Assembly (NCBI GenBank): GCA_029555415.1
Contig: JAKPSI010000082.1
Span: forward strand, 62,001 to 126,000
DNA: 64,000 nucleotides
Direction of reading: 5' to 3'
Source: Bacteroidota bacterium
GTDB lineage: Bacteria > Bacteroidota > Bacteroidia > Chitinophagales > Chitinophagaceae
Under the pieces are notes generated by a model. It saw only the letters and a list, made by a program, of their open reading frames with translations, was not told the origin of the DNA and ran no database searches. Of the stretch, positions 26,722 through 58,854 are shown piece by piece (within the stretch, counting starts at the first letter, position 1; every line of letters begins with the position of its first letter). The position numbers were made by a program, and so were the translations under genes.

Positions 26722-27528
26722 ATGATTCATCCTCATACATATATACACCCCAACGCAAGACTGGCGACCAATGTCAAGATCGATCCTTTTACGGTCATTC
26801 ACCAGGACGTAGAGATCGGTGATGGCACCTGGATCGGCTCCAATGTGACCATCATGGAAGGCGCAAGGATCGGTAAGAACTGCCGGATCTTCCCGGGTGC
26901 GGTCATCGCAGCCATTCCGCAGGACCTGAAATTCCAGGGTGAATATTCCAATGTATATATCGGCGACGGTACCACCATCCGTGAATTCGTAACGGTGAAC
27001 AGAGGTACCATGGACCGTGACAAGACCGTGATCGGTAAGAACTGCCTGATCATGGCATACTGCCACTTCGCGCACGATTGTCTGGTCGGTGATAATTGTA
27101 TCATGAGTAACAACACGCAGGTAGCAGGTCACGCCACGATCGGCGACTGGGCCATCATCGGCGGTATGTGCGCCGTGCACCAGTTCGTGAAGATCGGACA
27201 GCATTCCTTCATCAGCGGTGGTTCACTTGTAGGCAAAGATGTTCCTCCTTATATCAAAGCCGGTCGTACCCCGCTCAGCTATGCGGGGGTGAATTCCATC
27301 GGACTGAAACGCCGCGGCTTCAGCATCGAACGCATCAACCATATCCTGGATATCTACAGGGTACTGTATAATAAAGGCATGAACACCAGCCAGGCGGTTG
27401 AGTATATCGAAGAAGAAATGCCCGCCACTGATGAACGTGACGAGATCGTGACCTTCATCCGCGAAAGCGGCCGCGGTATCATCAAAAGATTCACCAAAGG
27501 CACCAACGATGACGATCTCCCTATCTGA
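26722..27528 (+). CDS. lpxA: UDP-N-acetylglucosamine acyltransferase LpxA
   Basis: 268 residues from ATG 26722 (MIHPHTYIHPNARLATNVKI). The N-terminal two thirds are hexapeptide repeats of the left-handed beta-helix (IGDGTWIGSNVTIMEGARIG and onward). The catalytic-site region is MAYCHFAHDCLVGDNCIMSN, with the catalytic His in the HFAHDC context. The C-terminal helical domain follows. It adds the first acyl chain to UDP-GlcNAc in lipid A synthesis. The 3' end overlaps the ABC ATPase gene by 20 bases. The usual lpxC/fabZ fusion partner is not adjacent. Confidence 0.93.
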   Translation: MIHPHTYIHPNARLATNVKIDPFTVIHQDVEIGDGTWIGSNVTIMEGARIGKNCRIFPGAVIAAIPQDLKFQGEYSNVYIGDGTTIREFVTVNRGTMDRDKTVIGKNCLIMAYCHFAHDCLVGDNCIMSNNTQVAGHATIGDWAIIGGMCAVHQFVKIGQHSFISGGSLVGKDVPPYIKAGRTPLSYAGVNSIGLKRRGFSIERINHILDIYRVLYNKGMNTSQAVEYIEEEMPATDERDEIVTFIRESGRGIIKRFTKGTNDDDLPI

Positions 27529-28129
27529 TGCCGGCAAACGCTTCAACCGCGACTGGATCTTCCGTCACGTCAATTTTCAATTCCACTCCGGAACTTCTTA
27601 CGCCATTACCGGTCCTAACGGCTCCGGCAAAAGCACGCTGCTGCAGGTTTTGAGCGGCGGTACCATGACCAATGAAGGCAAGATCAGCTTCACTGAGAAC
27701 GGTAAAGAGATCCCTTCCGAAAATATCTATCGTCATGTTTCGATCTGCGCTCCCTATCTGGAAGTGATCGAAGAAATGACGCTGCTTGAATTCCTGGCAT
27801 TCCACAGTGGCTTCAAACCCTTCCTGCCCGGCTTCACACACCAGCGTATCGTGGAGATCCTCGGGTTGGAAAAAGCCGCGAACAAACAGATCCGTTATTA
27901 TTCTTCCGGCATGAAACAACGCGTGAAGCTCGCGCAATGCATCCTGTCCGACTCCGCCATCGTTCTACTCGACGAACCCTGCACCAATCTCGACATCACC
28001 GGTATCAATCTCTATCACCAACTCATCGCCGAAAACGCGAAGGACCGCCTGGTACTCGTGAGCAGCAATGATGAAGTGGAATACCGCTTCTGCACGGAGA
28101 AGATCAATATCAACGATTATAAATCCTGA
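27509..28129 (+). CDS. ABC transporter ATP-binding protein
   Basis: 206 residues. It is a single, complete ABC nucleotide-binding domain: Walker A GPNGSGKSTLL (about 35-45), signature YSSGMKQRVKLAQ (about 130), Walker B AIVLLDEPCTNLD (about 150) and H-loop replaced by a Ser-rich VSSNDEVEYR. The canonical switch His is missing at that point. No membrane subunit is encoded next to it. It starts 20 bases before the end of lpxA, so the two are translationally coupled, suggesting a role in envelope biogenesis. The transported substrate is unknown. Confidence 0.85.
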   Translation: MTISLSDAGKRFNRDWIFRHVNFQFHSGTSYAITGPNGSGKSTLLQVLSGGTMTNEGKISFTENGKEIPSENIYRHVSICAPYLEVIEEMTLLEFLAFHSGFKPFLPGFTHQRIVEILGLEKAANKQIRYYSSGMKQRVKLAQCILSDSAIVLLDEPCTNLDITGINLYHQLIAENAKDRLVLVSSNDEVEYRFCTEKININDYKS

Positions 28130-43630: not shown

Positions 43631-46600
43631 TTACGGACGTCCTACGATCACCTTGAAGGCCTTCTCAGAAGTACGTGCGCCGTCTTTATAGTAGAAGCGT
43701 ACCATGTAGACACCTGCAGGCAGGCTTGTCAGATCTACATTTACTACTCTGCCATAACGCAGACCGCCATATTCCTGGTTACGTACCAGCAGGCCACCAT
43801 CTGTGAACACCTTCATGTTAAGGTAATTGTACAGGGTGCTGTTGACACGGATATTGAAGTTACCGTTGTTCGGGTTCGGGAACAGGATCACACCGTCGTT
43901 GCTCAGCAGGCGGACACGTTCCGGACATTCTTCCACTTTAGCTACAACCGTTGCGCTGTTAGCACAACCAGCAGTGCTGATGTAAGTATATGTCAGCGGA
44001 TACTGACCCACAGCTGTTGCTGACGGGATGAAATTGAATCCGGATACGCCGATACCAGACCATGCACCACCTGTCGGTGTACCCAGCGGAAGCAGGTTCA
44101 CCAGTGTATCGCTGATACAAACCCTTGACGGGAAGGCAGCGATCGAAACAGCAGGCGTTGCATTTACGGTCAGCGTAGCAGCATTGGATGTAACAGTTGA
44201 ACATGTATTGCTAACGATCACACGGTATTGATTACCGCTCAGTGATGTAGTTACACCAGTAAGTACCAGAGATGCTGCACCAGACGGAATGTTGGTCCAA
44301 GTAGTACCACCGTTAGTGCTTACCTGCCACTGATAGTTCTGGAAGTTGCCACCAGATACAACAGTAAAGGTTGCATTCGTACCCTGACATACAGCCTGAT
44401 TAACAGGTTGTGTCGTGATCGTAGCAGGTTGCACCACATTCACAGTTACGCTGGTTGCAGCTGATGTACAAGTAGCAGTTGCTCTTGTTACGGAATAAGT
44501 GGTCGTTACGTTCGGTTTAGCATAAACAGGACTTGCATACGTACCACCAACATAAGGAATAGTTGCAAGTGCGTTCGTGTAGAGACCTGTGATCGGACTC
44601 CAGATACCACCTGTGATCTCAAAGGTCATACTCCAGCCGCTGATAGATCCGGCGTCACCGGATACATCATCCACACCGAAGAGGCTCCAGGTTCCGTTCA
44701 TGTTACCGGTGAAGGTAGACAGTGTCGGTACCGCCTGGGTTACAGAGCCAGGACCGGGAGCGACCCATGTATCTGTTGCACCAATGTTTGTCGGTTTGTA
44801 TGTACCTGCAACCAACGGGCTAGGTATGGCAGCAACGGCTGCATCATCAATTGTAATGTTCACATTGGAAATTGATGTTGTTCCGGCAGCATCAGACATC
44901 AATACTACACTTGTACCGGTATTCGGTTGCTGCAGCAGGATATCCAGGTCGGACGGGAACGTATGGGTAATACCATTGATCGTTACAGATTTAACACGTA
45001 CACCGGAAGTAGGCAGACCCGCTACTGTGATCGTAGACGGATAAGGCCCGGCAATACCCACTGTAGTTCCGGTAGCAGGGATAGCAACAGGTCCGGCAGC
45101 CTGAGAGTTGATCGTAGTTGATGAAACGGTCAGCGTAGCAGTACCGTTCAGACAAACAGTAGCGCTTGACGGAGTTACAACAGGAGCAGCCGGAGTAGCA
45201 TTCACTACAGTGGTTGCTGTGTTGGTACAACCTGTAGCAGCAAGCGTTCCTGTTACTGTATAAGTAGTGTTCAGGAGCGGGTTTGCAGTTACGGTTGCGC
45301 CGGTTGTTGAACTGAGGCCGGCAGCAGGTGACCATGTATAAGAATCAGAGTTACCGGTTGCGGTCAGGGCTACAGGACCGCACTGGCCTGTCGGGCTTAC
45401 CGCGATGGTCGGTTTCGGATTCACTGTTACAGTAACCGTGGCGTTGCCAGAGTTACAAGTACCGGTCGTTCCGAAAACAGTATAAGTAGTCGTAGTAGCA
45501 GGGCTTGCATATACCGTATTCGCGGAAGTATTCGCAACATACGGGATCGTACCTGCTGCATCCAGCCAGAGGCCTGTTGCAGGCACCCATACTGCTGCAG
45601 AAGCTGTATAGTTGATCGTGATACTCCATGATGTAAGTGTACCCACATCACCTGAACCGTTATCACGCATACCGAGTGTCCAGTTACCATTCGCTACGGA
45701 ATAGAGTCCGCCGAATGTGGTCACTGTCGGTGTGAAGCCGGTTGGCGGATTCGCTGCAAGCGCATCCGCTGCGAATGTACCGGTGAACGGTGCAGTACCA
45801 GTAGCCAGAGATACTGAAGATGCAGAACTGATGGTTGTGTTGACGAAGTTGTCTCCGTTACTGCCACGTCCATTGATCAGGTTCAGGATCGCGCCATTGG
45901 GAGCTTTCAGGTTGAAGATCATATCACCATCCCAGGTATGTGTCATATTGAGGTTCACACTTACACCTGTAACAGTAGCCCCAGCCGGGATACCGCTAAC
46001 GGCGAGTGCATGAGAGATACCTGCAGGTGAGTTATCCGGAACAGTGACAGTGATCGAACCGGAAGAAACGGTAGCAGTACCGATCGCTGCAGAAGCGGTC
46101 AGTTGCTGGAAGCTTCCTGCGCAGATCACGGGAGCTGAAGGTGTGATGACCGGTGTCGGCGGTGTAGCCAGCACGTTCACACTTGCGCTGCTTGAACAAC
46201 CCGTAGCGGTGATCGTACCAGTTACAGTGTACACAGTGTTCACTGCCGGGTTGGCAATAACTGTGGTACCTGTAGCGGTATTCAGACCGGTGGCCGGTGT
46301 CCATGCATAAGTATTAGCGTTACCGTTCGCGGTCAGTGTTACAGGAGCGCAAAGACCACTCGGACCTGCATTCACTGTCGGAACAGGGTTCACTGTAAGT
46401 GTTGCTGCAGTTGTTGTTGAAGTACCGCAGGGGTTTGTTACCACGCAACGGAACTGGTATCCGTTATACACTACGCTTGCACCATTGATCAGAAGGATCG
46501 GAGTGTTCACGTTAGCGAACGGAGCAACGTTTGCGAGGTTGATCCAGGTACCACCGCCATTGGTGCTCACCTGCCACTGATAAGACGGCGGGATCGGAGC

Positions 46601-49600
46601 ATTGTCGGCCATACTGAAGGATGTATTCACACCAGCACAGATGGTCCTGCTCTGCGGGTTCGCAGTAATGTTAGGCGCACCTGTTGAAGTGATATTTACT
46701 GTTGATACAACAGAGCAACCCAATACATCGGTAGATGTCAGGGTGTAAGTCTGCAGACCAGCAGGGATCGCAGTGATGCTGAAGTTACCGGTTTGGTTGT
46801 TCGCGCCGGTAGGTGCATTTTGTACGATGGTACCAGCGCCGGTCAGCGTGTGGGTAATATTACCCGCAACCACCAGGGCCCAGTCAACCAGCGTACCGGT
46901 TTCACCTGCATTATTATCAGAAACGGTCAGTGTCCATGTGCCTGAAGTTCCGCAGGGGAATGTCAGACCTGCCCAGTTATGAGCAGCACCGTTCACGTCA
47001 GAAGGTTTGTAAGTACCTGCAGCGATGGTACCAGAAGCTGCCGTTTCAGGCAGAACTGTAGCACCAGCCAGGTCGAACAGATAAACACCAGACAGGTCGT
47101 CGGCGTTACCTGTACCCGTTGCAGGAACACCCGGGCGATCGAACGCGTAGGTTGTACCGCAGGGGCTTGTCAGTTTAACGATCACATCACCGGCAGATGT
47201 ATGATTCAGGTTCACGCGCAGTTTCAGGTTGCTGGAAGCAGGGATAGAAACTGAGGGCAGTTGCAGTGCTGAAGAAACACCTGCGGGATCATTATCAGGA
47301 ATGGCTGTATTAACAACACCACTGGAAGCGATGACAGCATTGCTGGTCGCACCACCATTAGCCGTACCTGTGATCGCGGAAGAACCCGGTGCGCAAACCA
47401 CGTTCGGTGTTGCGGATACCGCAGTATGGGTCAGTGCCGGGCTAACGTAGATCGCAGCGGCATTGGAAGTAGCTGTACCGCAGAAGCCGGTCACCACACA
47501 ATGGTAAATATTACCATTCAGTGCATTGGTCGGGTTGGTAATAGTATATGTAGCGCTGGTTGCACCCGGAACAGCGGTCCATGTAGTACCGTTGTTGGCA
47601 CTCACTTCCCACTGATAAGTGATCAATGTACCTGTAGCAGTTACAGAGAACACTCCGTTACCTGCAGTAGAACATCTTACCACACTGGCCGGTTGTGCAG
47701 TAATGGCAGGCGCTGTACAGGAAGCAGGCAGGATCAGTGTGGTCGTATCCGCAGTGATCACGCGCACATTCGTATTGTCGAACAGGCTGGAGCGCATATC
47801 CACGGTAGCGACAGCTTTCATAGAGATATCATCGATCCACCAGCCGGTTGCGGAAACGCTGTTATCAGAACCTTCGCGGAAGCGGATCTTCACGTTAGCC
47901 TGATTGGCGAACGGAGTCATGTTCACTACTGTCTTCACCCAACCACCACTTGAACCGGTCCAAGCAGAACGGCCAGCGAGCGGGTTAGAGAAGTTCAGAG
48001 AGATCGTTCCGTTATAACCACCGGAAACGATGTTTGCGCCGAGGTCAGTCCAGGTCGTACCACCGTTGGTACTGATCTCAACGACAGCACCGTCGAAGCC
48101 GGATTCCAGTGCGTAGTTATGCCAGAAAGTAAGTTGCGGAGGTGTTGCACCAAATGACATGGAAGCCGTTGTTGCAATGATCTGATCGGATACAGAACTG
48201 ATATCCGCAGAGAAGAATGCATTCGGAGCACTATGGCTTGATGTATTGGTAACAACCCAATGTGTTGTAGTTGTAGAGGTCTCGGTCCAGAAGGCCGGGA
48301 TCGTTGCGCCGGTTACCTGCTCGTCGATCAGTGTTGTCGGCGGGAAGTAACTACCCACGTTCACATTCACAGTGAAGGTGAATGCTGCTGAAGAGTTGGC
48401 TGCAACAGTTACCGGGTTGAAAGACACAACGCGGTTGAGCGCATCATAGGTACCACCACTTACATAGGTAACATTTAAAGGCAGTGTATCACGCAATGTA
48501 TAGTTGGTCATTGCAGTACATGCATCCGTTACGATGTTCTGGGTGTAAACGATATTCTGACCTTCCAGAACAGCGGTGATACCAGTGTTCAGTGTCAGAC
48601 CACCACCACCAACGGTGAAGTCGGCAACCTGGTCAGTAGCACTATTGGAAGAACCCTGAGAAGCGTTACGGCCCATACCTCTTTTCGCGAATGCTTTCCA
48701 GATGGCGCAGCTGTACTTCTTATTAAAGAACAGTGTATCTGCTTTCAGGATCGCGTTACGTGCATCGATGAAGCCGGGGCTGCAGGGCTGCAGGCGCATA
48801 CCTTCGATCACCAGTTTCATTGCGGAAGCGTTACCCACCATGGAAGCGGTCGGTCCCGGATCCAGGAAAGTGGGGTCGATGGCATTATCCTGTTTGATGA
48901 TCTCCCAGGTCATTTCCCAAATGGCCATACACCAGATCTCACCGATATTATGTACTTCCGTACCGATGATACCTGTTCCCATGTTCGCATAGGTCAGGGG
49001 GTTGATAGCGAGGTTAGTTGAATAAGGGAAGTTACGGATACCGGCGCCTGAAGTCGGCTGACCCAGTACGTAAGTACCCATCGGACGTGCGAGCGGACCA
49101 TCATTCACTGTAGCTGTAGCCCAGTTAGTGGTCATCATCAGCGCCATATAATCAGACCATCCTTCACCACCTTCTTCCGCGTTACCCAGACAGGATACGT
49201 TAGCCGGACCACCGGTAAGCCTGTTACTGATACCATGACCGTATTCGTGTGTAATTACACCGTTATCCAGATCACCATCACGTTGCGGTGAAGTTGTCGT
49301 AAAGAGGAACATCTGCATGCGGGGTCTTGAACCATCGGAAGGCGTTGCGAAGTTCGCGTTGTTCGTACCACCGGCATCCTGTGCATCTGCAATAACATAG
49401 TCAGCACCCAGACCACCACGGCTCTGGTTATCATTCTGGAAGTTACCACCCACCTCATCGAAACCATAAGCATAGGACATATCGTGCATCAGGTTGTTCC
49501 AGTAGAACAGGTTCGTGATAGCCGCTTTCTGGTTATTGAGGGTAGCCTCTGTAGGAGACTGGGTAAAATCGTAAAGGTTAGGGAAGGTCAGCGTGGGCTG

Positions 49601-50602
49601 AGGAGTGGTTGAGTTGGTGGAAAGACCGAAGGTAGCATTGCTGCCATCCCTGTCTTCCTGCGCCCAAACGTTATTACCACGGGCACTGTCATGATAGATC
49701 GAACCATCATAATGCCATTTCAGGCTTGTCGCGTTTCCGGGTGTCAGCGTCCAGGGATCAGTATGATCTGAAGGAGTACCACCGGTATGCTGGGGACTTT
49801 CAGCCGGATATTTAATTACTTTATAGGTAGCGGAGTTGACAACAAAGGGTTTGAACTCCCATTTGTTATTCAGGTTGCGGTTGATCACGAAATTATTTCC
49901 CGCATTCCTTTTCTCAGTGAAGAACTGAGCAGGGCTTTCTTTTTTATTGTCCCAGCTGTCTTTAACAGTCAGGCTTTCTTTACCGATCACTGTACCTGTA
50001 GCCGCGTCAACGCGAACCAGCCAGTAATCAGAGGATCTCAGGGGCGTAACGAACACCTGCCATACCAGGCGTACATCTTCCTTACCATTCTTCGGATACC
50101 ATAACAGTTCTGCTGTGATATTTTCTGAAGTAATGCCGAGTTTACCGAATTCAAAACGATGACCATTGTTCAGAATGGCGACCGGAACGGCTTGCTCAAG
50201 CGGCGTGATCTTCAGCTCAGAGAACGCTGCGGAAAGCGCGGTGAGCGCAGTAGCAGCAGGTACACCATTCTTCAGATTGGCGACCTTCTCAATGCTGCCA
50301 AGCCTTGAACCGGCGTTGGAAACGACTTTGTTATTCTGGAAGGCCAGCACCTGTACCTGGTTATAAACTGGAATTCCCTGGTATGCCTGTTGCAGGTATA
50401 CCATGCGGACATTGGAACCGGGAATCACATAAGATCCTCCCACGATAGCATTATCACTGCTGATATCAGAATTGGAAAGGCCGAGGGCCGCGCTGTTCTG
50501 GCGCAGCAGCTGCAGAGCAGCTTCCTTGTCCGTTTCTGTTACCTGTGCTTTACCGATAAAAGCGATCGCCAACAATACCGTAAGCAGTAAAAGTTTTTTC
50601 AT
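43631..50602 (-). CDS. Giant M36 (fungalysin) metalloprotease with proprotein-convertase P domains and T9SS sorting domain
   Basis: About 2323 residues from ATG 50602 ([20 protein letters not shown]). Order: signal peptide; propeptide (FTP/PepSY-like, about 20-230); M36 catalytic domain (about 310-680) with [10 protein letters not shown] (residues 452-456 HEYGH) and the downstream Glu in [16 protein letters not shown]; then adhesion-type domains including Ig-like domains and three P-domain copies (47300-46870, 46060-45610, 45080-44610, on the minus strand). The C-terminus ([18 protein letters not shown], then [20 protein letters not shown]) is a type A T9SS sorting domain. It should be exported and attached to the surface by the type IX system. 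Confidence 0.9.
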
Positions 50603-50894
50603 GAACGTAAGTGTTAAGTTAAAAGGTATGGTATAGTAATGGTATGGTTTTGCAGGACTAATTCGGAGGTTTCTACAGGAGTGGGATTTTCCGGGCATGG
50701 AAATTCCTGCAATAAAGAAGGGAGAAAAATCACTTTCTTCGTAAGCAGGTTTGGTATCATAAAAATCCGCTGTAATATAGGGAATAAACTAAAATCCACC
50801 CAAATCAAATCCTTCTGGTTTTCCGTAAAATATTTCCTACCCCGGGGTCGTTATATAACTGATTCGTCTGAAACCCTTTACCAAACAGTCTCTA
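50603..50894. other. Divergent intergenic region
   Basis: 292 bases between the M36 protease and the secreted-protein gene. Direct repeats GGTATGG (50625 and 50639 area) and several near-consensus AT-rich stretches are present, but no full -33/-7 pair could be picked. No RNA gene seen. Confidence 0.4.
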
Positions 50895-55696: not shown

Positions 55697-58690
55697 TCAG
55701 ATCACCACGTTGATCATCTTGTTCTTCACATAAATGATCTTCTTCGGCGCTTTGCCTTCCAGCCATTTCTGTACCGTGGCATCGGCCAGCACCAGGGCCT
55801 CCACTTCCGCCTGTGTGGCGGTCAGGGCGATGGTGAGTTCCGCACGGGTCTTGCCATTGATGGCCACCGGATAAGCTTTCGCTGTTTCCTTGACATGACT
55901 TTCGATGAAAACAGGATAAGCCGCATCAATGATGCTTTCTTTATGTCCCAGCAATGACCACAGCTCTTCACAGATATGCGGTGCATACGGTGTGAGCAGG
56001 ATCAGCAAGGGTTCAAGGATCGCGCGCTTGTGGCAGTTGAGGTCCGACAGCTCATTGGTAGCGATCATGAATGCGCTCACCGCGGTATTGAAACTGAAAC
56101 GTTCAGTGTCATTCTCGATCTTACGGATCGTGTTGTGCAGCACTTTCAGTTCAGCGGGTGTGGCTGCATCTTCAGTGACGATCAGTCCCTTCATTTCATC
56201 GGCGAACAAACGCCAGAATTTCTTCAGGAAACGGTGCACCCCTTCAATGCCCTTGGTGTCCCAGGGTTTGCTCATTTCCACCGGGCCGAGGAACATTTCA
56301 TACATGCGGAAGGTGTCGGCACCGAATTTATCAACCAATACATCGGGGTTAACGGTATTGAATTTCGACTTCGACATTTTCTCCACTTCGGAACCTGTCA
56401 AATAAGACCCCATGCGCTCTTGCTCACCCCCTGCAATAAACTCACCCCGTTTTTCGCCGCTTTCGAATTTTGGTGTTGTGAAATTATAATCTTCAAAAAT
56501 GAATTCGGCGTGTTTATTCTCAGCTTTGATCTTTTTGAACTGCTCAATATCTAATTCATAGCCATCAACAATATTTACATCTACATGCAGTTGAGTTATA
56601 TCGAATTTCTTAATCTCGATTTCCCCCAAATTGTTCGGATAATACATTAACGGAAGCATTCTTCTTAGAGCATCAAGAATGCCCCATTCATTATCTAAAT
56701 CATTGTTTATATATTTTTCATACAAGCCTTTAGATACATATATCTGAGGCCGCAGTAATCCATTGCTATCAAATGGATCTTTCTCAAAATGAATTTGTAA
56801 ACGATACACGAACCGGCTGCTTCCCTGGATCATTCCCTGGTTCACCAGTTTTTTGAAAGGCTCATCGTGTCCGATGAAACCCAGGTCATACAAGGCTTTC
56901 GTCCACATGCGGCTGTACAGCAAATGCCCGACCGCGTGTTCCGTTCCGCCGATGTACAGATCCACTTGCCCCCAGTAATCAGATACTTTACGGTCGCAGA
57001 AAGCCTGATCATTCTGCGGATCCATATAACGAAGGAAGTACCAACTGCTGCCGGCATAACCGGGCATGGTATTCGTTTCCAGTTCACGTGCTACCCATTC
57101 AGGGATGTTCGCGAGCGGACCCTCGCCTTCGGGACCGGGTTTGTAATTATCAACGTGCGGTAATTCCAGCGGGAGTTCGTTCGCATCCATCGGATAGGCG
57201 ACGCCTTCTTTCCACTTGATCGGGAAAGGCTCACCCCAGTAACGCTGGCGGCTGAACGCGGCATCACGCATCTTGAAATTCACTTTGCGTTTGCCAATGC
57301 CCATTTCTTCAAGCTTATCGATCACGATATCGATCGCGTCCTTCATTTTCACGCCATTCAGGAAACCTGAATTTTCCAGCAATGCTTCTTTCGTAGCATT
57401 CGCTTCTTCGCCATTATAAAATGAACCGATGATATTGGTGATGGGAATAGAGAAGTACTGCGCGAACTTATGGTCACGTTCATCGCCGCAAGGCACCGCC
57501 ATGATGGCACCGGTTCCGTAACCGGCCAGCACGTATTCAGAGATCCAGATGGGGATCTGCCGCTGATCGAAAGGATTCACGGCATAAGCACCGGTGAATA
57601 CGCCACTGATCTTCTTCTCCGCCATACGCTCGCGCTCACTGCGGCTTTTCACGTAAGCGATGTATTCTTCCACCGTAGTTTTCTGTTCCGCTGTGGTGAT
57701 CGTTTCCACCAGTTCATGTTCCGGGGCAATGACCATAAAGTCAACACCGAAAATAGTATCGGGTCTTGTTGTATATACTTTCAGTGAGGTTTTCTTGTCT
57801 GAATCCTTTGTGCCGAATACTTCAAAATCTATTTCCGCTCCGCTGGATTTTCCGATCCAGTTGGTCTGCATTTCTTTCATCGCTTCACTGAACTCGATGC
57901 GGTCGAGTCCTTCCAGCAAACGATCCGCGTATTCCGTGATGCGCAGGTACCACTGACGGAGTTTCTTTTTCACAACTGGGTGTCCGCCTCTTTCGCTCAC
58001 ACCGTTCACCACTTCATCATTGGCGAGTACGGTACCGAGGGCTTCGCACCAGTTCACTTCACCGTAACCGCAAAAAGCGAGTCGGTAGTTCATCAGGATT
58101 TCCTGGCGGCGTTTCTCGTCAAAATTTTTCCAGTCGGCTGCAGTGAAGGCCAGACCTGCATCTCCGGGACAAGCATGCGCTGCATTGCCTTCTTTTTCAA
58201 AAATGGCGATGAGCTCAATCAGTGGTTGCGCTTTCTTCGTTTGTCTGTTGAAAAAAGAATGGAAAAGTTGCAGGAAGATCCACTGTGTCCATTTATAATA
58301 ACCGGGTTCGCAGGTGCGGACCTCGCGTGACCAGTCGTAGCAGAATCCGATATTATCGAGCTGCCTTCTGAAATTGGCGATGTTATTCTCAGTGGATACG
58401 GCGGGATGGATACCATGATCGATGGCATATTGTTCCGCAGGTAATCCGAACGCGTCATAACCCATCGGGTGCAGGACGTTGAAACCCTTCAGTCGCTTAT
58501 AACGGCTGTAGATATCGGAGGCGATATAACCGAGTGGGTGGCCCACATGCAATCCCGCACCGCTGGGGTAAGGGAACATATCGAGCACATAACATTTGGG
58601 GCGTGTGAAATCATTGGCCACTTTATAAGCGCCGGTTTCATTCCAGTGTGCCTGCCATTTCTTTTCAATATTCCTGAACTGGTATTCCAT
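55697..58690 (-). CDS. leuS: Leucyl-tRNA synthetase with an unusual insertion
   Basis: 997 residues from ATG 58690 (MEYQFRNIEKKW; an ATG two codons earlier also exists). Class I synthetase with HIGH motif PYPSGAGLHVGHPLGYIASD, the editing domain (CP1) with GTGAIMAVPCGDERDHKFA, and KMSKS in EKMSKSKFNTVNPDVLVDKF. Usual Bacteroidota LeuRS proteins are about 920-950 residues. The extra length lies between LVNQGMIQGSSRFVYRLQ (about 620) and VEKMSKS (about 780): two blocks, IHFEKDPFDSNGLLRPQIYV and YNFTTPKFESGEKRGEF with neighbours. The DNA there (56450-56810) is AT-rich compared with the rest of the gene. Confidence 0.93.
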   Translation of the reverse strand: MEYQFRNIEKKWQAHWNETGAYKVANDFTRPKCYVLDMFPYPSGAGLHVGHPLGYIASDIYSRYKRLKGFNVLHPMGYDAFGLPAEQYAIDHGIHPAVSTENNIANFRRQLDNIGFCYDWSREVRTCEPGYYKWTQWIFLQLFHSFFNRQTKKAQPLIELIAIFEKEGNAAHACPGDAGLAFTAADWKNFDEKRRQEILMNYRLAFCGYGEVNWCEALGTVLANDEVVNGVSERGGHPVVKKKLRQWYLRITEYADRLLEGLDRIEFSEAMKEMQTNWIGKSSGAEIDFEVFGTKDSDKKTSLKVYTTRPDTIFGVDFMVIAPEHELVETITTAEQKTTVEEYIAYVKSRSERERMAEKKISGVFTGAYAVNPFDQRQIPIWISEYVLAGYGTGAIMAVPCGDERDHKFAQYFSIPITNIIGSFYNGEEANATKEALLENSGFLNGVKMKDAIDIVIDKLEEMGIGKRKVNFKMRDAAFSRQRYWGEPFPIKWKEGVAYPMDANELPLELPHVDNYKPGPEGEGPLANIPEWVARELETNTMPGYAGSSWYFLRYMDPQNDQAFCDRKVSDYWGQVDLYIGGTEHAVGHLLYSRMWTKALYDLGFIGHDEPFKKLVNQGMIQGSSRFVYRLQIHFEKDPFDSNGLLRPQIYVSKGLYEKYINNDLDNEWGILDALRRMLPLMYYPNNLGEIEIKKFDITQLHVDVNIVDGYELDIEQFKKIKAENKHAEFIFEDYNFTTPKFESGEKRGEFIAGGEQERMGSYLTGSEVEKMSKSKFNTVNPDVLVDKFGADTFRMYEMFLGPVEMSKPWDTKGIEGVHRFLKKFWRLFADEMKGLIVTEDAATPAELKVLHNTIRKIENDTERFSFNTAVSAFMIATNELSDLNCHKRAILEPLLILLTPYAPHICEELWSLLGHKESIIDAAYPVFIESHVKETAKAYPVAINGKTRAELTIALTATQAEVEALVLADATVQKWLEGKAPKKIIYVKNKMINVVI
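56450..56810. other. AT-rich insertion inside leuS
   Basis: The segment encoding the extra blocks before the KMSKS loop is visibly more AT-rich than the surrounding gene and keeps the reading frame open. It may be an acquired or recombined segment in the leucyl-specific region, or a lineage-specific insertion. Confidence 0.6.
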
Positions 58691-58854
58691 AATCATTCAT
58701 GTTGTTGCGGTACTGTTACCCTTTCGTTGCCGGAAAGATCGACCGGCGGCGGCATGACGTTGAGAAAACGTTAAAAACCCGGAAAGCGGCAATACAGTGG
58801 TACTGCAACCGTTTTGTGGAGGAACAAAAATACGGATTGTAGGCCTGAATCTGT

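What the first reader, a model, noticed from the sequence alone, without database searches (positions are those of the whole stretch)
56450..56810. AT-rich expansion of LeuRS next to the KMSKS loop
About 60-70 extra residues in two blocks sit between GMIQGSSRFVYRLQ and VEKMSKS, where Bacteroidota enzymes have a shorter link. The DNA is clearly more AT-rich than the flanks while the frame is intact. The region belongs to the leucine-specific insertion that contacts the tRNA, so it may change tRNA handling or mark horizontal acquisition.
Basis: partly seen in the sequence, partly recalled or inferred. Interest (0 to 1): 0.55.

Follow-up and report, generated by a model that had tools for sequence, protein, structure and literature searches.

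The report
Swappable hypervariable domain in leucyl-tRNA synthetase
One domain of an essential, otherwise conserved enzyme (the one that loads leucine onto its tRNA) has been replaced wholesale, again and again, between related bacteria, as if something attacks it and lineages keep changing the lock.

Summary
leuS (55697-58696, minus strand, 999 aa) has a 146-residue leucine-specific domain (LSD) before KMSKS, where many relatives have 70-78. Its DNA is AT-rich beyond what its amino acids require (GC3 0.36, expected 0.56, z -5.7). The shift starts just after SSRFVYR and covers parts that are not extra, so the domain looks replaced, not lengthened.

In 188 LeuRS of the family and order the long LSD is hypervariable. 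Of 8 pairs with cores >= 95% identical and at least one long LSD, 6 have LSDs of 35-48% identity, 2 of 91-94%. Several segment types are shared by distant cores but not by sisters (one group's single clade rejected, p-AU 1e-53). In two genome pairs leuS is the only internal, or the lowest, such case among 82 and 130 orthologue pairs. tRNA-Leu genes barely change.

Best reading: a horizontally exchanged LSD cassette, folded and constrained within types, probably diversified by LeuRS-directed antagonists. For the window itself, exchange rests on composition; its tree test is inconclusive (p-AU 0.16). The antagonist is inferred, helped by published TM84 work (PMC5059758). Neutral exchange is the main rival.

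The parts
55697..58696 (-). leuS, leucyl-tRNA synthetase, 999 aa
   Evidence: Open frame; Pfam PF13603 LeuRS editing domain 194 bits and PF08264 anticodon-binding domain 64 bits; single copy in the genome; best solved relatives are leucine--tRNA ligases, 7nua E 4.1e-177
56384..56821 (-). Leucine-specific domain (LSD), residues 626-771, long form of 146 residues; the hypervariable, exchangeable unit
   Evidence: Window residues 625-768 fall in the gap of the alignment to Neisseria LeuRS 7nua, opposite its residues 586-630; the Neisseria paper gives 586-638 as LS domain plus KMSKS loop (PMC9424281, passages); anchors
56489..56800 (-). AT-rich, apparently replaced stretch, residues 633-736, beginning directly after SSRFVYR
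   Evidence: GC 0.21-0.37 and GC3 0.18-0.38 against 0.53-0.61 expected in its four pieces; flanking 40 codons GC3 0.70 and 0.65
56744..56800 (-). Variable block 1, residues 633-651
   Evidence: Extra against short forms; GC3 0.26, z -3.5
56600..56710 (-). Variable block 2, residues 663-699; about half of it a predicted helix (H46-63 of the LSD model, residues 667-684 of the enzyme)
   Evidence: GC3 0.38, z -3.1
56489..56599 (-). Part kept in short and long forms (ITQLHVDVNIVDG...FED, residues 700-736), here also AT-rich
   Evidence: Alignments; GC3 0.30, z -3.6
56396..56488 (-). Variable block 3, residues 737-767, low-confidence in the models; composition nearly normal (GC3 0.42, z -1.4)
   Evidence: Mean pLDDT of the two blocks over LSD-model residues 121-140 is 65 and 50; below 50 at 741-761
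56366..56380 (-). KMSKS catalytic motif, residues 773-777
   Evidence: Translation; K773 M774 S775 K776 invariant in the 81-row alignment

Best explanation
The feature is a long allele of an exchangeable LSD cassette in LeuRS. Shown here for the family: the LSD is swapped as a unit between lineages, with breakpoints close to the conserved SRFVYR and GxEVEKMSKS edges; long-form segments fall into many types, several of them shared between distant cores while sister species carry unrelated ones; the segments are under purifying selection within types, and the window's LSD is predicted to fold. Inferred: that the window's own LSD came in this way (its foreign composition and sharp edge say so, its tree test does not decide), that swaps run by homologous recombination on the conserved edges, and that diversity is kept by selection from agents that act on LeuRS through or near the LSD (a nucleotide antibiotic of the agrocin 84/TM84 kind, or a phage or toxin protein that binds LeuRS), so that a new LSD type escapes recognition while aminoacylation is preserved. 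I put exchange at about 0.9 for the family and 0.75 for the window, and the antagonist part at about 0.4 given the exchange.
For: Pairs with core >= 0.95 and at least one long LSD: 6 of 8 have LSD identity 0.35-0.48 (e.g. L194/L064 core 0.97, LSD 0.35, 76 vs 136 aa; L204/L187 0.97, 0.45; L222/L218 0.96, 0.36). Short-short pairs at core >= 0.95 keep 0.91 on average (n=9). Flanking bins of 28 swapped pairs are close to those of 58 unswapped pairs. Incongruence: of 25 long LSD segments with a long-LSD core neighbour >= 0.85 only 5 have it as best segment match; in 15 of the other 20 the core neighbour scores at or below the shuffled maximum of 33, and 7 of those 15 have a strong match (>= 80) in a distant core, e.g. 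L187 scores 12 with sister L183 (core 0.95) and 168 with L173 (core 0.72). Cores of L187, L173 and L189, which share a segment type, reject one clade, p-AU 1.2e-53. Gene specificity: leuS lowest of 130, and the only internal case of 82 orthologue pairs. Within-type w 0.10-0.47 in 8 of 13 pairs where estimable. LSD model pLDDT 85.9, pTM 0.80. tRNA-Leu almost unchanged across a swap. In published work the LS domain of a sensitive LeuRS put into the AgnB2 triple mutant enlarged the clearing zone, and that construct's IC50 for TM84 was 34-fold below wild-type AgnB2 (PMC5059758, sections 9 and 12 read).
Against: For the window itself the tree gives no proof: held together with its best segment match L091 the core tree is not rejected (p-AU 0.16). 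An earlier test with L063 added was rejected (p 0.0013), but L063's segment is unrelated to the window's (score 25), so I do not count it. No recent donor: 0 of 3916 long-long pairs have LSD identity above core identity; phage and IMG/VR searches gave nothing usable. At core >= 0.88, 7 of 14 long-long pairs keep the same type, and 2 of 8 pairs at core >= 0.95 keep LSD identity 0.91-0.94. LSD GC3 follows host GC3 (slope 0.92, r 0.74), which does not fit one foreign AT-rich source. Short/long states are clustered on the tree (38 changes against a mean of 63 in 100 shuffles). Short LSDs are also slightly AT-shifted (mean z -0.91). ValRS of one pair also has a variable stretch (0.38). In the TM84 work the 34-fold figure includes the three active-site changes, the LS domain alone had no effect in wild-type AgnB2, and H. 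pylori LeuRS without LSD was still inhibited. No antagonist of these bacteria's LeuRS is known to me or was found.
Confidence: 0.43

Rival explanations
1. Neutral exchange: the LSD is a tolerant domain; recombination on conserved edges brings in random variants and no selective agent is needed.
For: LS domain is absent in some bacteria and not absolutely required for aminoacylation or editing (PMC5059758); many sizes are tolerated here, 63-184 aa; flanks give natural recombination edges.
Against: Segments are under purifying selection within types (w 0.10-0.47 in 8 of 13 pairs) and the window's LSD folds confidently; other proteins do not show it in 82 and 130 orthologue pairs, apart from one protein at 0.38 and two N-terminal ends.
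Confidence: 0.32
2. Co-adaptation with tRNA-Leu: LSD changes follow changes of the tRNA substrate.
For: The LS domain binds tRNA and discriminates isoacceptors in E. coli (PMC5059758).
Against: G186 and G317 differ in LSD (136 vs 76 aa, identity 0.35) but four of five tRNA-Leu are identical over their full length and the fifth (CAA) has three substitutions. One pair only.
Confidence: 0.08
3. Fast divergence in place: no exchange, the LSD simply evolves quickly and is AT-rich from relaxed codon selection.
For: LSD GC3 follows the host (r 0.74); the long LSDs aligned share one architecture; the window is not separated from L091 by its core tree.
Against: Length change and replacement between 97% identical enzymes; segment types shared across distant cores but not by sisters; slower-evolving, compositionally near-normal long types exist (genus g15 and the Puia-like group).
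Confidence: 0.1
4. Remnant of a mobile nuclease insertion, like the DUF559 modules found in leuS of relatives.
For: DUF559 nuclease domains with palindrome-like flanks sit in frame in leuS of five relatives and in aroC of this very genome.
Against: Those insert at other leuS loops (core 293 and 534); 34 of 35 long LSDs have no Pfam hit at E <= 0.01 and one has a marginal unrelated hit; the LSD model has no PDB match.
Confidence: 0.05

Closest known systems
Leucine-specific (LS) domain of bacterial LeuRS (Neisseria, E. coli)
   Same: Same place between the catalytic core and KMSKS (PMC9424281 passages); the known domain moves with the KMSKS loop and helps place tRNA (PMC5059758, PMC9424281)
   Different: 146 aa instead of about 45 in Neisseria; hypervariable, swapped between relatives, AT-rich; no sequence or fold match to solved LSDs
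AgnB2, agrocin 84 self-immunity LeuRS
   Same: LSD variation (there, loss) contributes to the response to a LeuRS-directed antibiotic (PMC5059758)
   Different: AgnB2 lacks the domain and adds active-site changes; here the domain is enlarged and exchanged, and no antibiotic is known
Target-recognition domains of type I restriction HsdS subunits (recalled, no call)
   Same: Exchangeable variable cassettes between conserved edges, types shared across lineages
   Different: Here inside an essential aminoacyl-tRNA synthetase, single copy; no second LSD-like match in the one genome searched at E <= 0.001
Rickettsia palindromic elements: selfish DNA in protein genes (recalled, no call)
   Same: In-frame extra DNA in essential genes; relevant to the DUF559 inserts seen in passing
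   Different: The LSD is a native domain replaced by another version, not a repeat inserted anew

Membership tests
Bacterial leucyl-tRNA synthetase | LeuRS editing (CP1) domain and class I catalytic/anticodon domains | tested here: met
   PF13603 194 bits, PF00133, PF09334, PF08264
Bacterial leucyl-tRNA synthetase | HIGH-like and KMSKS motifs intact | tested here: met
   HVGH 50-53 and KMSK 773-776 invariant in 81 rows
LS domain of LeuRS | Insertion directly before the KMSKS loop at the position of the solved LS domain | tested here: met
   alignment gap opposite 7nua 586-630; PMC9424281 passages
LS domain of LeuRS | Sequence or fold similarity to solved LS domains | tested here: not met
   Foldseek best E 2.8, no VIA match among 33 chains; profile search best E 0.44, to an unrelated protein. 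So it is the LSD by position, not shown to be homologous to the solved ones
Intein or homing insertion | Intein/homing endonuclease domain in the protein | tested here: not met
   Pfam scans of the whole protein and of the LSD show none
Exchangeable cassette (HsdS-TRD-like behaviour), family level | Conserved edges, type sharing across lineages, unrelated types in sisters | tested here: met
   p-AU 1.2e-53 for L187/L173/L189
Exchangeable cassette (HsdS-TRD-like behaviour), the window itself | Core tree separates the window from the LeuRS that shares its segment type | tested here: inconclusive
   Window with L091: p-AU 0.162
Exchangeable cassette (HsdS-TRD-like behaviour) | Within-species polymorphism under frequency-dependent selection | not testable with these tools
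   The genome sets hold one genome per species

The most novel reading that the evidence does not exclude
LeuRS carries a trans-lineage 'allelic' recognition domain: Chitinophagaceae maintain many LSD types by repeated cassette exchange because LeuRS is a contested target (antibiotic, phage or toxin), making an essential housekeeping enzyme a hypervariable immunity-like locus.
Probability: 0.35. Interest if true: 0.85.

Novelty: new variant of a known kind. Interest (0 to 1): 0.7.

Why it matters
Aminoacyl-tRNA synthetases are usually treated as conserved enzymes and as drug targets. A domain beside the active site that is swapped wholesale between some sister species, while the rest of the enzyme stays 95-97% identical, points to an unseen selective agent acting on LeuRS, or at least to an unusual recombination hot spot, and gives a ready list of natural LSD variants with which to look for it. 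It also warns that leuS gene trees and marker alignments should leave this domain out.

Tried and rejected
Simple AT-rich insertion in two blocks: rejected, because the retained LSD parts are equally AT-shifted. Amino-acid make-up as the cause of AT-richness: rejected. Second LeuRS copy as donor: none in the genome. Phage or plasmid source: one partial phage-record hit at E 4e-5, the 76 plasmid records match only below 60% identity, the IMG/VR scan found 158 pattern matches and no relative. Fold of the LSD: no PDB match. Nuclease origin of the LSD: no Pfam support. Assembly error: unlikely, since long, mutually different LSDs occur in G235 (3 contigs), G343 (1 contig) and the cultured Hydrotalea sandarakina DSM 23241 and Flavihumibacter petaseus NBRC 106054. 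Phylogenetic proof for the window: my first test grouped the window with L091 and L063 by overall LSD identity and rejected a clade (p 0.0013); on checking, L063's segment is unrelated (score 25) and the proper pair, window with L091, is not rejected (p 0.16), so that argument was withdrawn and the odds for the window's own exchange lowered. Sampling caveats: relatives were ranked by score against a long-LSD query, so the 89:99 ratio is not a prevalence; pairs share members and are not independent; 2 partial rows and 7 rows without anchor motifs were dropped, and 7 of 245 loci gave no complete frame; segment comparison used 72 of the 89 long LSDs, those with the common SSRF...HVDV frame. Of the three G186/G317 cases with a window under 0.45, two lie near mechanically called N-terminal ends and I discounted them by inspection. 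Literature: searches (CC-licensed PMC library only, listings seen) showed no report of hypervariable LeuRS LSDs; searches showed none of in-frame DUF559 insertions. Papers: PMC5059758 passages and sections 9 and 12 read; PMC9424281 passages only.
Full report
Observation. leuS lies at 55697-58696 on the minus strand and encodes 999 aa without interruption. It is the only LeuRS of the 3.97 Mb, 139-contig genome. GC drops to 0.30-0.33 over 56480-56779 against about 0.5 around it. Compared with relatives the protein has +14, +36 and +26 residues between GMIQG and EKMSKS. This is the place of the leucine-specific domain: residues 625-768 are unaligned opposite residues 586-630 of Neisseria LeuRS 7nua, and the Neisseria structure paper describes 586-638 as LS domain with KMSKS loop (PMC9424281, passages).

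Composition. Using the codon choices of the rest of the gene and the LSD's own amino acids, GC3 should be 0.56; it is 0.36 (z -5.7), below every other same-length window in the gene (lowest 0.52). Piece by piece, SSRFVYR and the 40 codons on either side are normal (GC3 0.71, 0.70, 0.65), but everything from residue 633 to 736 is shifted, including the two pieces that short forms also have (IYVSKGLYEKY GC3 0.18; 700-736 GC3 0.30, z -3.6); block 3 (737-767) is nearly normal. The AT-rich tract therefore looks like a replaced domain, not two inserts.

Relatives. Searches of 59 relatives (59 of 59 matched at E <= 0.001, G032 only weakly), 394 family genomes (393 of 394) and GTDB contigs (best 80 of 413 kept) gave the comparison set; named relatives are Chitinophagaceae (Flavihumibacter, Lacibacter, Sediminibacterium, Hydrotalea, Niastella and others). 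From 245 loci I obtained 195 distinct complete LeuRS and 41 exact duplicates; 2 partial rows were dropped and 7 loci gave no complete frame. Seven of the 195 lacked the anchor motifs, leaving 188, mostly of the family, some of other families of the order. LSD length is bimodal: 99 short (<= 90 aa), 89 long (>= 95 aa). Selection of loci by score favours long forms, so this is not a prevalence. Long LSDs are AT-shifted beyond their amino acids in 58 of 89 cases (z < -2; mean -3.2), short ones in 15 of 99 (mean -0.9).

Hypervariability. For short-short pairs LSD identity follows core identity: 0.91 at core >= 0.95 (n=9), 0.85 at 0.90-0.95 (n=25). For long-long pairs it is 0.67 (n=4) and 0.46 (n=7); for short-long pairs 0.42 (n=4) and 0.33 (n=8). 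Of the 8 pairs at core >= 0.95 with at least one long LSD, 6 lie at 0.35-0.48 and 2 at 0.91-0.94. Examples: L194/L064 core 0.97, LSD 0.35; L204/L187 0.97, 0.45; L222/L218 0.96, 0.36; L120/L097 0.95, 0.40; L171/L095 0.91, 0.21. In DNA alignments of six swapped pairs identity collapses inside the LSD and recovers at its edges, while two control pairs stay aligned throughout. In 28 swapped pairs (core >= 0.87) the flanking 10-codon bins average 0.84-0.91, against 0.84-0.92 in 58 unswapped pairs and 0.70-0.87 in 293 pairs at core 0.76-0.79; slight dips occur at single bins (for example 0.849 against 0.892 at codons 31-40 after the LSD), so tracts end near the LSD. The short/long state needs at least 38 changes on the 188-row core tree; 100 shuffles average 63, minimum 53, so it is labile but not random.

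Exchange in the family. I cut the variable segment out of 72 of the 89 long LSDs, those of the common SSRF...HVDV frame. Two thousand shuffled comparisons gave a maximum score of 33. Of 25 segments with a core neighbour at >= 0.85 identity in this set, 5 have that neighbour as best match and 20 do not; in 15 of the 20 the neighbour scores at or below 33, in 2 it scores 39.5, in 3 it is of the same type but not the top hit. Seven of the 15 have a match of 80 or more in a distant core: L187 scores 12 with its sister L183 (core 0.95) but 168 with L173 (core 0.72) and 162 with L189 (0.78); L183 scores 178 with L155 (0.79); L195 and L220 score 176 (0.76); L189 scores 3 with its sister L192 (0.89) and 176 with L173; L098 and L212 score 83 (0.76). 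Held together as one clade, the cores of L187, L173 and L189 are rejected with p-AU 1.2e-53 (31 rows, quick tree). At score >= 80 the 72 segments form 49 clusters, 39 of them single; at core >= 0.88, 7 of 14 pairs are of the same type and 7 unrelated. No recent donor was found: 0 of 3916 long-long pairs have LSD identity above core identity.

The window itself. Its segment matches L091 best (score 100, core 0.79; next 53.5). On the core tree the window groups with short-LSD enzymes and L091 with Lacibacter-like ones, but holding window and L091 together is not rejected (p-AU 0.16). A first test that added L063 was rejected (p 0.0013) but L063's segment is unrelated (score 25). For this genome the case for replacement therefore rests on composition with a sharp edge and on what its relatives do.

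Specificity. In about 190-200 kb of two genome pairs, orthologues were compared for their worst 50-column window. G186/G317: 82 pairs with >= 0.85 identity elsewhere, three with a window below 0.45, namely leuS (0.18) and two near N-terminal ends of mechanically called ORFs. G235/G343: 130 such pairs, two below 0.45, leuS the lowest (0.14) and one other protein at 0.38. IleRS of the same pairs is at 0.90 and 0.86, ValRS at 0.70 and 0.66, but ValRS of a third pair (G069/G336, overall 0.87) has a window at 0.38.

Function. Within types the segment is under purifying selection: w 0.10, 0.41, 0.13, 0.12, 0.47, 0.21, 0.19 and 0.34 in the eight of 13 pairs where dS could be estimated, against 0.03-0.08 for the rest of the gene where estimable; four of these dS values exceed 2, one pair rests on ten differences, and the window/L091 pair is among the five that could not be estimated. 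AlphaFold2 gives a confident fold for the window's LSD alone (pLDDT 85.9, pTM 0.80, 35 rows) and a weaker one in the full enzyme (78.3, pTM 0.70), with block 3 of low confidence. No solved structure matches. The five tRNA-Leu genes of G186 and G317, whose LSDs differ in length and sequence, are identical in four cases, with three substitutions in CAA; so co-adaptation to tRNA is unlikely there.

Interpretation. The literature read says the LS domain moves with KMSKS, guides tRNA, is not absolutely required, and is absent in some bacteria; AgnB2, the self-immunity LeuRS of the agrocin 84 producer, lacks it. Adding an LS domain to the AgnB2 triple mutant enlarged the clearing zone, and that construct's IC50 was 1.8 uM against 61.3 uM for wild-type AgnB2 (a figure that includes the triple mutation), while adding it to wild-type AgnB2 had no effect and H. 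pylori LeuRS without it was still inhibited (PMC5059758, sections 9 and 12). A contested LeuRS is therefore a reasonable, unproven reason for the swapping. Neutral exchange in a tolerant domain is the main rival and cannot be excluded with one genome per species. Against a single foreign source, LSD GC3 follows host GC3 (slope 0.92, r 0.74), although more isolated long LSDs tend to be more AT-shifted (81 cases, Spearman 0.34, p 0.002). Long LSDs (98-193 aa) were also found in 9 of 22 readable LeuRS of 25 fetched in a phylum-wide sample, 7 of them in other families of the class, so the module is not confined to this family.

Side finding. DUF559 nuclease domains flanked by what look like translated palindromic repeats sit in frame in leuS of the five relatives chosen for such inserts (G007, G013 twice, G025, G027, G029), in aroC of the window's own genome and in a mutase-like gene of G029; one more relative (L055) has a PBECR3 nuclease domain in leuS. 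They use other sites than the LSD and I treat them as a separate phenomenon.

Noticed in passing
L324 946-2442 (G000:C96 near 27375-27695): In the window's own genome the chorismate synthase gene (aroC, named by recall from its sequence) is a 499-aa open frame that carries a DUF559 (PF04480) nuclease domain in frame, flanked by repeat-like peptides (SPLTPLQGRGE..., SPSPQEREPEGE...): a probable mobile nuclease with palindromic ends inside a biosynthetic gene.
   Followed up: partly
L034, L051, L052, L053, L054: LeuRS of five relatives carries in-frame DUF559 nuclease inserts at CP1 (core 293) or core 534, one enzyme with two (1315 aa).
   Followed up: partly
L055: LeuRS of a relative from another family of the order has an in-frame PBECR3 (phage barnase/EndoU-like nuclease, PF18812, E 1.6e-18) insert at core 293.
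   Followed up: no
L331 868-3324: DUF559 domain in frame inside a methylmalonyl-CoA mutase/IcmF-like gene of G029 (gene named by recall).
   Followed up: no
L295/L296: IleRS of G069 has an open frame of 1328 aa with an unaligned stretch in frame where the other IleRS match directly.
   Followed up: no
L249: LSD of 184 aa with an extra stretch inside it, while four relatives at core 0.91-0.93 have LSDs of 70 aa.
   Followed up: no
window 43633-50698: Giant ORF (about 2350 aa, minus strand) with internal stretches of low GC3 (146-codon windows at 0.33-0.36); the one 80-codon window listed has normal overall GC, 0.46.
   Followed up: no
L301/L303: ValRS of the pair G069/G336 also has a variable stretch (worst 50-column window 0.38 at column 611).
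   Followed up: no
leuS elsewhere, pairs: Other divergent bins in some close pairs about 80-110 codons before the LSD and about 60-80 codons after it, suggesting further variable loops in LeuRS.
   Followed up: no
GenBank MT837415.1, bases 7-171: A record labelled 'Bacteriophage sp.' begins with a LeuRS-like fragment (38% identity, query residues 76-156), possibly mislabelled bacterial DNA.
   Followed up: no
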